This document shows, piece after piece, positions 27,003-62,109 of a stretch of DNA of 64,000 nt; the first letter of the stretch is position 1; each line of letters begins with the position of its first letter. Origin of the DNA: Planococcus lenghuensis (lineage in GTDB: Bacteria; Bacillota; Bacilli; Bacillales_A; Planococcaceae). The stretch spans positions 3,576,001-3,640,000 of the forward strand of contig NZ_CP019640.1 of NCBI RefSeq assembly GCF_001999905.1, read 5' to 3'. Under the pieces are notes generated by a model. The model worked only from the letters and a program-made list of their open reading frames with translations. It ran no database searches and was not told the DNA's origin. The position numbers were made by a program, and so were the translations under genes.

Positions 27003-27098
27003 CTGAAGGGAACCTGGCAGCCTGACTTCCGTACGCCGACCGGCGGTTAGGTTCGCGGCTTTGCGTCCTTTCCTTTCGGAGAAGTTTGCCTTTTTCAG
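27003..27098 (-). ncRNA. c-di-GMP-I (GEMM) riboswitch
   Basis: On the minus strand the aptamer shows the conserved pieces in order: GGCAAAC, a CGAAAG tetraloop-type turn, GGACGCAAAGCC, CCTAA, a variable hairpin, and GCTGCCAGGTT (the tetraloop receptor side). The closing P1 can form from CTGAA (27094-27098) and TTCAG (27003-27007). Downstream, CCCTTCA can pair with TGAAGGG at 26982-26988, which overlaps the GAAGGGAGG ribosome site of the secreted protein. Ligand-stabilised P1 would occupy TTCAG and leave the ribosome site free, so an ON switch at translation is inferred. Confidence 0.88.
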
Positions 27099-27162
27099 TT
27101 GGTTTAAAGATAATGGATCCGTGTTACCGGCCTGCAGGTAATTTATGTTTTAAGCCCGTTTT

Positions 27163-56591: not shown

Positions 56592-59500
56592 TTATTGACA
56601 ATCATTTTGCAACGTTGGGGCATTAACACTTACATAGTCTGGCATGACATCCCGATCTTTAAGCCAATTCATTATTAGCACACCAGAAACTTGATTATTA
56701 TATATAGCATTATGGCCCGCCAATTCTTTTGTATCAACAACAACATATCGTCTATCGAAATCCAATGTAATCTTATCGTCGGAAAAATCGGACTCTATAT
56801 TATAATTAGAACCTAACGCACTATGGAAAGATACCCAGGTATCATTCCAAAGAGTTGGCCTACTGTTCCATTCCAACCAGTTATCATGTTTATTAAGGCA
56901 CTGTTGGGCTAAAGCAACGTAATTTGTACCTTGTCCTTCTCTAGTTTCCGGATACCAAACTGACATTGGATTTGAAGCAATTGCCATACTTACTCCAGCT
57001 AACGCAAAATATTTAGTATCCCCTTTGTTAGATAAAAAATCTTCATTTAATTTTTCAGTAAATGACTTTGTAGGGACAGCAATGTTTCTAATATCTCCTT
57101 GTGGACTAATCTCTTGTTCTAAAACGTAAGGTTCAGGATAAAGATCTTTATCCATGTCAAACCCCGTTAAACCAAAAGTTTCAGGAGAGTTCAGGTCTTG
57201 TCCTATAACATAGAATTCTCCACCCCAGTGAGGAGTGGCTAGTGTCATGATAGATTCTACTTGAACTTTCGAACTGCTATTTTTCACTTTTTCATTGTAG
57301 TAACGTGATACTAAGCCTCCAGCTGAGTGAGTAATGAAAATAACACCCGGTTTGACTTTACCTTCTTTATCCGGAGTTTCTAGATAGCCCTCAGTAACTA
57401 AATTGTTTAAAAATCTATCTAACATGACACCAGAGACATCTAAATGGCCGCGGTTCGGATAGTTGTAAGCAAAAAATTTATTCTCATAGGAATCAGTATT
57501 ATTATTCATCAATCGATAAGTATCAGATTCGAGATTTTCTACCAAGTATCCCATCAGTTTGGTCATGTCACTGCTGCCTCTTTTAATTAATTGATTTTCA
57601 GGGTTCGTATAATAAGTATCTGTATTAGGATTATCTCCTATATCAGAAAACTCATCATCATTTTCACCGGGATTAATCGCACTTACTGCCCCAAAAGGTG
57701 CTTTTGTATTGCTTATTCTGCCGTGTACAAACACGATAGAAGGAGCATATGGTTGTTTAGGATAACGGTCATCAAAGTCTGAATAACCATCCCCATCTGT
57801 GTTTTGTTCGCTGGGATTACTACTAAAAGTCCAATATTTAACTCCATCATATCCTGTCCATTCTTTGTCTAGTTCAACTGAATCTGGGATTGTATCTCCA
57901 TCAGAATCAGTCTCCAGATCCTCTTTATCAGGAACTTTTTTTAATTTAACAATGTTGCCAGTAGCTAGTCTTATCCATACATAAGAACCAACATCTTCTT
58001 CAATCTTATCGATAAGAGGAACTAAATTAGAGGCGAAATTTCCATATAAACTCGCCCAAATACCATCAGTAATGCTATATAGTTCATCATAAAATGACCG
58101 GTAATATGAATTTCCGATTACTGATACAGAAATTTCATCTTCTTTTAACAATTGAATTTCATCATGCATAGAAGTTACTTCCGCAAATCGAGTACTTGCT
58201 TTATAATTTACATCCGTAAGTAAAACGATGTACTTACCAACGTTTTGTCTGTATTCTAATCCTCTTGCTTCCTCAAGAGCATCAACAGCAGATTCTGGAG
58301 CATCACCACCACCTGAAGCACGAATTCCTGAAACTTTGGTTTTAAATTCTTCAACATCGGTAAACCATCCGAAATTTTTAGTTGAATCTAAACCATCAGC
58401 TGAAATATCCTTAAACTCAACAAGTCCTAGTCTCACATCTACTTTCTTTTCTGCCAATTGATTCACGAAAGAATTAATGTTATTCTTTACATTTGAAATG
58501 GCGCTCCCCATAGAACCTGTGGAATCAATTACGAACACGATGTCAGATGGACCTTTTTCAATAGTACTTTCCGTATTGTCTGAAACTCTATCATAATCAT
58601 AAATTCCTTTGTCATAGGCAAAAACTGGACTGAAATGAGATACGATAGCTGTTAATGTATTATTTGCCGTATCAATGTCCGTTTCCAATTCAATGAACCT
58701 GGATTCCTCTTCATTAAAACTACCAATTCTGAGGTTTTCAATTTTATGTTTCTCTAAGATATCGGGCTCAATCTTCAAGGTAATCACAGCGCTTTCGAAA
58801 TCACCTAGAATTTCTACATTAACTGGTTTGCCAATAATAGCTCTTATAGACTTTAGGAATACATGTTTAGAAGCATCTTGTATACCTACTCTGTGGTTAA
58901 TATCCCCTTTTGTTCTAAAGGTAATAGAAGGAACTACTCCGCCTAAAGGACTTAAATGTTCAAATTTCTCACTTTCAAGATCTTGCTCTGTTATTTCTTC
59001 AGAATCGATTACGCCGTTCCCGTCAGTGTCTTGTTTAAGAGGATCAAAACCTAGTTTAATTTCACTGCCATCTAACAGTAAATCTTCATCTGTATCTTCT
59101 TTACTGGGATTAGTCTTATGGTTGTTTATTTCTTCGCTATCAGTCAAACCGTCGCCATCAGTATCGCTCTTTCCCGGATTTGTTTTGGCCTTTATTTCTT
59201 CTTTATTAGTAAGACCATCTTTATCGCTATCTTCAATGTTATCTGTCACACCATTATGATCGGTATCTTTAACTGTAGGGTTTGTAGTAGTGTATATTAA
59301 TTCATGGCCGTCATTTAATCCATCTTGGTCTGAATCGGCATTTTTAGAATCTGTGCCTAATTCTTCTTCCTTATCATCTGCAACTCCATCCTGGTCTGAG
59401 TCAAGTTTAATGTTAGGATCTGTAGTTAACTCAAGAATATTGCTTTCGGCTACTAAGCTTCTACTATCACTTGCTGGTTTTGTCCAAATGACTCTTGCTT

Positions 59501-59822
59501 GTAAGCTTGAAGTAAGATAATCATGTAATAAAATCTCCTTATTGATTTCTACTTTTTCATTTGGCTTCAATGAATCAAGTTGATGGCGTTCCACAACTTT
59601 CTCATCCACTAAGTACTCAATGACCAAATCCTTGTTACCAGAGTAACTTGTATCATTCCTGTAAATAGTGTTCACAGAAAAAGGCTCTCCAGGAAGGACG
59701 AAGGTTGAGGCATCAATTTTGATTTCAGGCTTATTTTTTTGATTTTCTGCAAGTACTGGCGTTAACGATTGAAGTACCAGCAGTAAAGTCAACAGAATAA
59801 TAAATGGCGTTTTATTCTTCAT
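56592..59822 (-). CDS. Secreted multidomain protein: TSP3-like repeats, vWA domain, alpha/beta hydrolase
   Basis: 1076 residues. Signal peptide 1-25 (MKNKTPFIILLTLLLVLQ start, cleavage after VLA). An Ig-like N-terminal region (about 30-130) leads to calcium-binding thrombospondin-type-3 repeats (about 134-280; DSDQDGVADDKEEELGTD and similar). A vWA domain (about 428-620) has the metal-site start FVIDSTGSMGSA. A second short repeat set (DTDGDGYSDFDDR-type) precedes an alpha/beta hydrolase/lipase-like domain (about 690-1060) with IVFVHGR, the serine elbow ITHSAGGLVSRYY, TLATPHWGG and a likely catalytic His in LAGHNAIYNN. No wall anchor. AAAGGAGAAATAG precedes the ATG. AT-rich and probably acquired. 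A secreted lipase/acylase with a protein- or surface-binding vWA module is inferred; target unknown. Confidence 0.85.
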   Translation of the reverse strand: MKNKTPFIILLTLLLVLQSLTPVLAENQKNKPEIKIDASTFVLPGEPFSVNTIYRNDTSYSGNKDLVIEYLVDEKVVERHQLDSLKPNEKVEINKEILLHDYLTSSLQARVIWTKPASDSRSLVAESNILELTTDPNIKLDSDQDGVADDKEEELGTDSKNADSDQDGLNDGHELIYTTTNPTVKDTDHNGVTDNIEDSDKDGLTNKEEIKAKTNPGKSDTDGDGLTDSEEINNHKTNPSKEDTDEDLLLDGSEIKLGFDPLKQDTDGNGVIDSEEITEQDLESEKFEHLSPLGGVVPSITFRTKGDINHRVGIQDASKHVFLKSIRAIIGKPVNVEILGDFESAVITLKIEPDILEKHKIENLRIGSFNEEESRFIELETDIDTANNTLTAIVSHFSPVFAYDKGIYDYDRVSDNTESTIEKGPSDIVFVIDSTGSMGSAISNVKNNINSFVNQLAEKKVDVRLGLVEFKDISADGLDSTKNFGWFTDVEEFKTKVSGIRASGGGDAPESAVDALEEARGLEYRQNVGKYIVLLTDVNYKASTRFAEVTSMHDEIQLLKEDEISVSVIGNSYYRSFYDELYSITDGIWASLYGNFASNLVPLIDKIEEDVGSYVWIRLATGNIVKLKKVPDKEDLETDSDGDTIPDSVELDKEWTGYDGVKYWTFSSNPSEQNTDGDGYSDFDDRYPKQPYAPSIVFVHGRISNTKAPFGAVSAINPGENDDEFSDIGDNPNTDTYYTNPENQLIKRGSSDMTKLMGYLVENLESDTYRLMNNNTDSYENKFFAYNYPNRGHLDVSGVMLDRFLNNLVTEGYLETPDKEGKVKPGVIFITHSAGGLVSRYYNEKVKNSSSKVQVESIMTLATPHWGGEFYVIGQDLNSPETFGLTGFDMDKDLYPEPYVLEQEISPQGDIRNIAVPTKSFTEKLNEDFLSNKGDTKYFALAGVSMAIASNPMSVWYPETREGQGTNYVALAQQCLNKHDNWLEWNSRPTLWNDTWVSFHSALGSNYNIESDFSDDKITLDFDRRYVVVDTKELAGHNAIYNNQVSGVLIMNWLKDRDVMPDYVSVNAPTLQNDCQ

Positions 59823-60697: not shown

Positions 60698-61027
60698 ATG
60701 CGGCCGTTGGCAACAATGGAATCCGTTGAAACTTTTATTCAGCGGGAAGGATTGAATTTTCTCTATGTTCTGCGTCCCGGCTGAGGAGTCTGTCATGCAC
60801 TGCTTCCTCAGGTTGAGGAAGTGATGGACGGTTACCCCCGCATCCGGACAGCGACGGTGGATGCGGAACAGATCGAAGAACTGGCTGGACTTCTGTCCCT
60901 CTTCACGGTGCCGGTTTTAATTTTATTTGTGGATGGAAAAGAAATGCTGCGGGAAGCCCGGTTTGTGCATATTGAGGAGTTTCACCGGAAAATCGGCAGA
61001 CTCTATGAAGGCTATTTTTCCGAATAA
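60698..61027 (+). CDS. Thioredoxin-like protein (YdfQ-type) with in-frame TGA at the first active-site Cys: selenoprotein candidate or pseudogene
   Basis: Reading from ATG 60698 (GAAAGGGGG upstream), the frame gives MRPLATMESVETFIQ, NFLYVLRPG, then TGA (60782-60784), then GVCHALLPQVEEVMDGYP and on to FTVPVLILFVDGKEMLREARFVHIEEF, ending at 61027: 110 codons, the length of YdfQ-like thioredoxins. Relatives have CGVC here, so the TGA occupies exactly the position of the first redox Cys; decoding as selenocysteine would give UGVC. The frame is otherwise intact and codon use normal. The convergent neighbour is mnmH, a selenium-dependent tRNA gene. A nonsense mutation (TGC or TGT to TGA) is the alternative; a shorter product from ATG 60821 would lack the active site. 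Confidence 0.7.
60781..60821 (+). promoter_or_regulatory. Hairpin pair at the in-frame TGA (candidate SECIS-like structure)
   Basis: CTGAGGA (60781-60787, containing the TGA) pairs perfectly with TCCTCAG (60805-60811), enclosing 17 bases. The same right arm can instead pair as CTTCCTCA / TGAGGAAG (60803-60821) around a 3-base loop. A bacterial SECIS element lies directly 3' of its UGA, so position fits, but no known SelB loop consensus was identified with confidence. Confidence 0.35.
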
Positions 61028-61065: not shown

Positions 61066-62109
61066 CTACTTGTTATTTACCAAAGTTGGGAGAGTTTCTT
61101 TCACAGCTGCTGCCGCTTCTTCAACGTTATCTGCTTTCAATACGGTCTTCTCCGCCTTGGGCAACTGGCTGCCTTTATGTTCGTACCGTGAATCGTAATA
61201 CCCCTCCAGCAGCGACCGTACCGCTGAAGCGAAGTCACCGCTCCAGAGATCTTCTTCAATCTGGTTTGCGACAGGCGTATGCATGCGGGTGCGAATCCGG
61301 TTGAATGCCTGGATGCATTCCTGCTGGTACTTCTCTGGCTGATAATCTGCCAGAATGATGCCGATACGTTCATCAATCGGCAAGTCGATGATCAATTGCG
61401 GGCTTTGCTCTTTCAATTCCTGCAAAAACTGCGGCATCACAATTTTGCCGATCCGGCTGCTTTCCGCTTCGAACAGGACGTAAGGCGAGTCCTTGAGCTG
61501 GCGCAGCCGCTCAGCAAGCAGCGCGTCGAATTTTTTCTGGTTATTCGGCCGGTCTCCGATATGTCCGAAGATTGATCCTTTATGGCCGGCCATACCTTCC
61601 AGGTCAATGACCGGATACCCTTCCTGCTCCAGCATCTTCAATACTCTTGTTTTCCCGGAACCGGTCAGCCCGTTCAGTACCGCAGCCTTGAATGGCACTT
61701 TAAACTGCTCCAGTTCATTAACGACCCATTTCCGGTAAGCCCGTACGCCGCCTTCAAGCCGCTGGACACGCAAACCCATTAAGTCAAGCATTGTGGCAGC
61801 CGTCTTGCTGCGCATGCCGCCCCGCCAGCAGAACAGCGTAATGTCCCCATCCACTTCCTGGAACTGCCGGATGAATTCGGGCAGTTTAGCAGAGACAATT
61901 TCCAGGCCGCGCTGTTTTGCGGTGTCCGTACCCACTTGTGTATATAACGTGCCGACTTCCGCCCGTTCAGCATCCGTGAACAGCGGAATATTGATGCTGC
62001 CAGGCATCGAAAATTCCTGATACTCAGACGGCGACCGCACATCCACCAACACCATTTTTCCTTCTTCAACAAGTGGCATCAGTTCTTCAATTACTATATT
62101 TTTAACCAT
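61066..62109 (-). CDS. mnmH: tRNA 2-selenouridine synthase
   Basis: 347 residues (SelU/YbbB). Replaces sulfur by selenium, via a geranylated intermediate, at the wobble 2-thiouridine of tRNAs for Lys, Glu and Gln, using selenophosphate from SelD. N-terminal rhodanese domain with DVRSPSEYQEFSMPGSINIPLF and the catalytic Cys in FCWRGGMRSKTAA near residue 95; C-terminal P-loop domain with NGLTGSGKTRVL and DLEGMAGHKGSIFG. ATG 62109 lies five bases after GGAGGG. Its presence implies a selD gene elsewhere in the genome. Convergent with the TGA-containing thioredoxin gene. Confidence 0.95.
   Translation of the reverse strand: MVKNIVIEELMPLVEEGKMVLVDVRSPSEYQEFSMPGSINIPLFTDAERAEVGTLYTQVGTDTAKQRGLEIVSAKLPEFIRQFQEVDGDITLFCWRGGMRSKTAATMLDLMGLRVQRLEGGVRAYRKWVVNELEQFKVPFKAAVLNGLTGSGKTRVLKMLEQEGYPVIDLEGMAGHKGSIFGHIGDRPNNQKKFDALLAERLRQLKDSPYVLFEAESSRIGKIVMPQFLQELKEQSPQLIIDLPIDERIGIILADYQPEKYQQECIQAFNRIRTRMHTPVANQIEEDLWSGDFASAVRSLLEGYYDSRYEHKGSQLPKAEKTVLKADNVEEAAAAVKETLPTLVNNK

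What the first reader, a model, noticed from the sequence alone, without database searches (positions are those of the whole stretch)
60698..61027. In-frame TGA exactly at the first redox cysteine of a thioredoxin-like gene, beside mnmH
The frame from ATG 60698 to 61027 is a full-length YdfQ-like thioredoxin interrupted only by TGA at codon 29, where relatives have the first Cys of CGVC. Read as selenocysteine it gives UGVC, the usual layout of redox selenoproteins. The convergent neighbour is the selenium enzyme MnmH, so the cell should make selenophosphate. Selenocysteine genes are uncommon in Bacilli, and Cys to TGA is a single-base change, so a nonsense pseudogene is the main rival.
Basis: partly seen in the sequence, partly recalled or inferred. 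Interest (0 to 1): 0.85.

Follow-up and report, generated by a model that had tools for sequence, protein, structure and literature searches.

The report
A selenocysteine-containing thioredoxin-like protein gene
A small thioredoxin-like gene that looks broken by a stop codon is almost certainly intact: the cell has the full equipment to read that UGA as selenocysteine, the selenium amino acid, at the protein's active site, and related bacteria keep the same UGA and its RNA signal.

Summary
In detail: one open frame 60698-61027, interrupted only by TGA at 60782-60784 (codon 29), the first redox position of a thioredoxin-fold protein. The genome encodes SelA, SelB, tRNA-Sec (anticodon UCA) and a SelD that itself carries an in-frame TGA. 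The same TGA stands in 15 of 261 family genomes, 14 of which have selA, selB, selD and tRNA-Sec; none of 18 Cys-bearing relatives in the family has selA. The frame after the TGA is under purifying selection. A hairpin 26 nt downstream (10 bp, GGU loop) fits the bacterial SECIS model, is kept in all 15 genes with one compensatory change, and is absent from most Cys relatives. Two further TGA copies in another Bacilli family sit 1-2 kb from selB. The mnmH neighbourhood is not conserved and five selenocysteine-decoding genomes lack MnmH, so that argument was weak though its conclusion was right. Selenocysteine thioredoxins are a known kind; this subfamily is not in a 2026 inventory of 119 families nor in NCBIfam. 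One genome keeps the TGA gene and hairpin with no detectable sel genes, a stranded selenoprotein gene. Incorporation is inferred, not shown biochemically.

The parts
60698..61027 (+). trx-like selenoprotein gene, 109 aa read with Sec29, UGVC motif
   Evidence: conserved frame in 17 genomes
60782..60784 (+). TGA codon 29, read as selenocysteine (inferred)
   Evidence: TGA at the same codon in 15 orthologues of the family (14 in sel+ genomes, plus G016); TGC/TGT elsewhere
60791..60793 (+). TGT codon 32, resolving Cys of UxxC
   Evidence: invariant Cys in alignments A1 and A3
60801..60823 (+). bacterial SECIS hairpin in the mRNA: 10-bp stem 60801-60810/60814-60823, loop GGU 60811-60813, 26 nt after the UGA
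   Evidence: fits the bSECIS model quoted in PMC13188914
60682..60691 (+). ribosome-binding site AAAGGGGGAA before ATG 60698
   Evidence: sequence read directly
61066..62109 (-). mnmH, tRNA 2-selenouridine synthase; convergent neighbour that shares the need for SelD, not a required part
   Evidence: NF008750 348.6 bits over cut-off; adjacency not conserved

Best explanation
The gene encodes a 109-residue thioredoxin-fold selenoprotein. When the ribosome reaches UGA 29, SelB carrying Sec-tRNA-Sec is recruited by the SECIS hairpin 26 nt downstream and inserts selenocysteine. Selenium is activated by SelD and loaded on the tRNA by SelA. The product has a UGVC active site in which the selenolate of Sec29 attacks a disulfide (or other oxidised) substrate and Cys32 resolves the mixed selenenyl-sulfide, as in a thioredoxin. 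Shown here: the frame, the conserved UGA, the complete sel gene set, the conserved SECIS, selection on the frame. Inferred: actual Sec insertion, the redox role, the partners.
For: selA 556 bits, over cut-off; tRNA-Sec 63 bits, over cut-off, anticodon UCA; selB 383 bits, over cut-off; SelD 421 bits with one TGA inside, GGUGCK. TGA conserved at 70% protein identity in the sister species Indiicoccus explosivorum and in 13 further family genomes. TGA versus selA: 14 of 15 TGA genes are in selA genomes, 0 of 18 Cys genes; Fisher p 1.8e-8, counting genomes, not independent events. pN/pS 0.26 after the TGA. SECIS stem 7-10 bp in all 15 TGA genes against mean 3.9 in 83 Cys relatives; compensatory U-A to G-C in the sister. 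Planococcus koreensis, at a syntenic locus and without sel genes, has TGC. In another Bacilli family the TGA gene lies 1.2-2.1 kb from selB. Thioredoxin fold with residue 29 at the active site.
Against: No biochemical proof. G016 keeps the TGA gene and SECIS without detectable selA, selB, selD or tRNA-Sec. Synonymous shuffles reach the stem length in 0.3-6% of draws, so in single genes part of the hairpin follows from the amino acids; the strength lies in its conservation. The compensatory evidence is one pair.
Confidence: 0.94

Rival explanations
1. Nonsense pseudogene: a Cys codon mutated to TGA and the gene is dead or makes a 28-residue stub.
For: Cys to TGA is a one-base change; one genome with no sel genes (G016) carries the same TGA.
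Against: The same TGA is kept in 17 genomes, to about 57-71% protein identity within the clade, with no other stop; purifying selection after the TGA; full sel machinery.
Confidence: 0.01
2. The UGA is read through by a near-cognate tRNA (for example as Trp) or the gene makes two separate peptides by internal initiation at GTG 60821, independent of selenium.
For: A 68-aa ORF starts at GTG 60821.
Against: The internal ORF begins after the active site and lacks it; the TGA-bearing genes track the presence of selA, selB, selD and tRNA-Sec, and Cys genes their absence; a SECIS fitting the model follows the TGA.
Confidence: 0.03
3. Sequencing or assembly error at 60784.
For: None found.
Against: Independent genomes show TGA at the homologous codon.
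Confidence: 0.002

Closest known systems
Selenocysteine-containing thioredoxin (Trx, PF00085, UxxC; experimentally verified family, PMC13188914 ref. 84)
   Same: Thioredoxin fold, Sec at the first position of the redox motif, UGA plus SECIS decoding, UxxC motif.
   Different: This is a divergent, about 109-aa thioredoxin-like subfamily far below the TrxA equivalog cut-off (TIGR01068 27.6 against 96.8 bits), motif UGVC/USVC, found in Planococcaceae and one other Bacilli family.
PDB 4EUY, uncharacterised Cys thioredoxin-like protein
   Same: Closest solved relative (E 3.9e-18), aligned over residues 3-100 with CGVC at the UGVC position.
   Different: Cys in place of Sec.
UGC-containing TlpA family and HUIPC-motif thioredoxin-like selenoprotein (PMC13188914 Table 1)
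   Same: Trx-fold selenoproteins predicted in bacteria.
   Different: Different subfamilies and motifs; NCBIfam scan of the protein returned none of the newer selenoprotein models.

Membership tests
Bacterial selenoprotein gene | In-frame UGA with conserved open frame on both sides | tested here: met
Bacterial selenoprotein gene | SelA, SelB, SelD and tRNA-Sec in the same genome | tested here: met
Bacterial selenoprotein gene | bSECIS: 3-9 nt loop, 4-16 bp stem, G in first two loop positions followed by G/U, 16-37 nt from UGA, MFE at or below -7.5 kcal/mol | tested here: met
   loop GGU, 10 bp, 26 nt, -13.1 kcal/mol
Bacterial selenoprotein gene | Cys-containing homologues with Cys at the UGA position | tested here: met
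   69 of 80 named relatives have TGC/TGT, 10 TGA; the one TTC (L131) is a motif match at the wrong place, since its protein has Cys in SVCH
Bacterial selenoprotein gene | Selenocysteine shown in the protein | not testable with these tools
   needs 75Se labelling or mass spectrometry
Thioredoxin-fold oxidoreductase | Thioredoxin fold with C/UxxC at the start of the active-site helix and a conserved Pro opposite | tested here: met
   PF00085 over cut-off, model pLDDT 95 and PDB thioredoxins; P72 invariant
Thioredoxin TrxA equivalog | Score over TIGR01068 cut-off | tested here: not met
   27.6 against 96.8 bits
Thioredoxin-fold oxidoreductase | Disulfide reductase activity | not testable with these tools
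   needs the purified protein

The most novel reading that the evidence does not exclude
A thioredoxin-like selenoprotein subfamily, not previously catalogued, that changes between Sec and Cys in step with the loss of the whole selenocysteine system (Planococcus koreensis), and that in one genome (G016) persists as a UGA gene with its SECIS after, or without, any selenocysteine machinery.
Probability: 0.6. Interest if true: 0.6.

Novelty: new member of a known kind. Interest (0 to 1): 0.5.

Why it matters
Automatic annotation will tend to call this gene broken or cut it at codon 29. It adds a selenoprotein subfamily in Bacilli (only 3 selenoproteins were counted in Bacillales in 2006, PMC1794560) and, with the TGC orthologue of P. 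koreensis at the same locus, gives matched Sec and Cys enzymes for testing what selenium buys. The genome's FdhA is not interrupted by TGA, so the trait here is kept by SelD and thioredoxin-fold proteins rather than by a Sec-type formate dehydrogenase.

Tried and rejected
Pseudogene, base error and near-cognate readthrough were considered and rejected (see rivals). MnmH adjacency as evidence was tested and found not conserved. Folding the single 81-nt stretch gave no signal (z -0.79); only the local, comparative test did. Whether the P. koreensis TGC is a reversal or a sister lineage is not settled: the tree needs two changes, but an AU test does not reject all TGA genes as one clade (p 0.21). 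Literature searches for selenocysteine in Planococcus or Planococcaceae found nothing relevant. The 'order' search returned the same 261 genomes as 'family'. A frame slip in the SelD query makes its selD rows meaningless; one search is the corrected run.

Full report
Observation. The frame ATG 60698 to TAA 61027 is open apart from TGA at codon 29, 60782-60784. With that codon read through, the protein matches Pfam Thioredoxin (E 1e-6, over the cut-off), and an AlphaFold2 model on 44 sequences is a confident thioredoxin fold (pLDDT 95, pTM 0.88) that Foldseek places among solved thioredoxins. Residue 29 lies just before helix 30-43 and Cys32 in its first turn, the canonical redox site. The closest solved sequence, 4EUY, aligns CGVC with UGVC. 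The neighbour 61066-62109 (-) is MnmH.

Machinery. The window's genome (4.15 Mb, 4 contigs) has selA (556 bits; C1:2005695-2007068, -), selB (383 bits; C1:2007372-2009243, -) and tRNA-Sec (63 bits; C1:2009425-2009517, +; ARAGORN anticodon TCA; Rfam again). SelD lies at C1:2011207-2012136 (421 bits) and is itself interrupted by TGA in GGUGCK, the known UxxK site. All are within about 6.5 kb.

Conservation. Among 261 family genomes, 15 carry an orthologue with TGA at this codon, all with the layout U-G/S-V-C and one internal stop. After the TGA the pooled pN/pS is 0.26, before it 0.37 (synonymous sites are near saturation, so this is a rough figure). Of the 15, 14 have selA over cut-off, and the same 14 have selB, selD and tRNA-Sec. 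None of 18 Cys-bearing relatives in the family has selA over cut-off. Fisher p is 1.8e-8, with genomes counted as if independent, which they are not.

The natural control. Planococcus koreensis (G089) has the orthologue at a locus syntenic with G090 and G116, with TGC, without selA, selB, selD or tRNA-Sec, and with the hairpin broken (cttccgcaaatagaagaag; stem 4). The tree puts it inside the TGA clade (starred branches), which suggests a change from Sec to Cys on losing the system, but an AU test does not reject a single TGA clade (p 0.21), so the direction is likely, not proven.

SECIS. The mRNA after the UGA forms 60801-60810/60814-60823 around loop GGU, 26 nt from the UGA. The published bacterial model asks for a 3-9 nt loop, 4-16 bp stem, G in the first two loop positions followed by G or U, 16-37 nt spacing and MFE of -7.5 or below (PMC13188914); all are met (-13.1 kcal/mol). 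All 15 TGA genes have a 7-10 bp stem, against mean 3.9 in 83 Cys relatives (p 7e-10, again without correction for relatedness). The sister changes U-A to G-C on both sides. Third positions are more conserved in codons 37-44 than elsewhere (0.80 against 0.61). With synonymous recoding, 0.3-6% of draws reach the stem length, so the hairpin is only partly explained by the amino acids.

Outside the family. A sample of 399 Bacilli genomes gave two more TGA orthologues (G350, G494), USVC, with the same hairpin. In both the gene lies near selB: 1.2 kb in G494 and 2.1 kb in G350.

Mechanism. Best supported: Sec29 is inserted by the standard SelA/SelB/SelD/tRNA-Sec route and acts as the attacking selenolate of a thioredoxin-type UxxC site with Cys32 resolving. 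Insertion, activity and partners are inferred. Selenium starvation would be expected to end translation at codon 28 (inference).

MnmH. SelD is indeed present, but MnmH is absent from G095, G107, G087, G104 and G117, which have both the TGA gene and the sel genes, and no mnmH was found next to the TGA gene in the other loci fetched (the sister's contig ends too soon to tell). The adjacency is therefore circumstantial.

Novelty. Selenocysteine thioredoxins (PF00085, UxxC) are experimentally known (PMC13188914). This divergent subfamily is not named in that paper's table of 119 families, has no NCBIfam selenoprotein model, and literature searches gave no report for Planococcus or Planococcaceae. 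Only openly licensed papers were searched. I file it as a new member of a known kind.

Open oddity. G016, a one-contig genome rated 100% complete, keeps the TGA gene and hairpin but has no match over cut-off to selA, selB, selD or tRNA-Sec. The gene lies beside a block of rhodanese-like and sulfur-transfer-like genes, called so from their sequence only, that also flanks it in G087 and G095. Recent loss of the sel genes, transfer of the block into a non-decoding genome, or a missing replicon are all possible.

Noticed in passing
L010:6879-7640 (-), directly downstream of selA (genome C1:2004878-2005639): A second likely selenoprotein: a TlpA/ResA-like frame interrupted only by TGA at ASW-U-RC, followed by a GCTGCC-AGGCT-GGCAGC hairpin; the TGA is conserved in G073, G102 and G103. 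Motif URC, near the known UGC-type TlpA selenoproteins.
   Followed up: partly
L020 / L134:9887-10210 (G016): TGA-type gene with intact SECIS in a genome without detectable selA, selB, selD or tRNA-Sec: a stranded selenoprotein gene, beside a rhodanese/sulfur-transfer-like gene block.
   Followed up: partly
L156 (genome C1:2735894-2737900): Formate dehydrogenase alpha subunit has no in-frame stop, so FdhA, often the sole bacterial selenoprotein, is not Sec-type here.
   Followed up: partly
window 27013-27100 (-): c-di-GMP-I riboswitch aptamer (67.6 bits).
   Followed up: no
window 61150-61236 (+): ARAGORN calls a tRNA-Thr(cgt) inside the mnmH coding sequence on the other strand; Rfam does not report it, so probably a false call.
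   Followed up: no
window 56592-59822 (-): 1076-aa secreted protein with many DxDxDG calcium-binding-like repeats and an apparent lipase-like segment (FITHSAGGLVS); read from the translation only.
   Followed up: no
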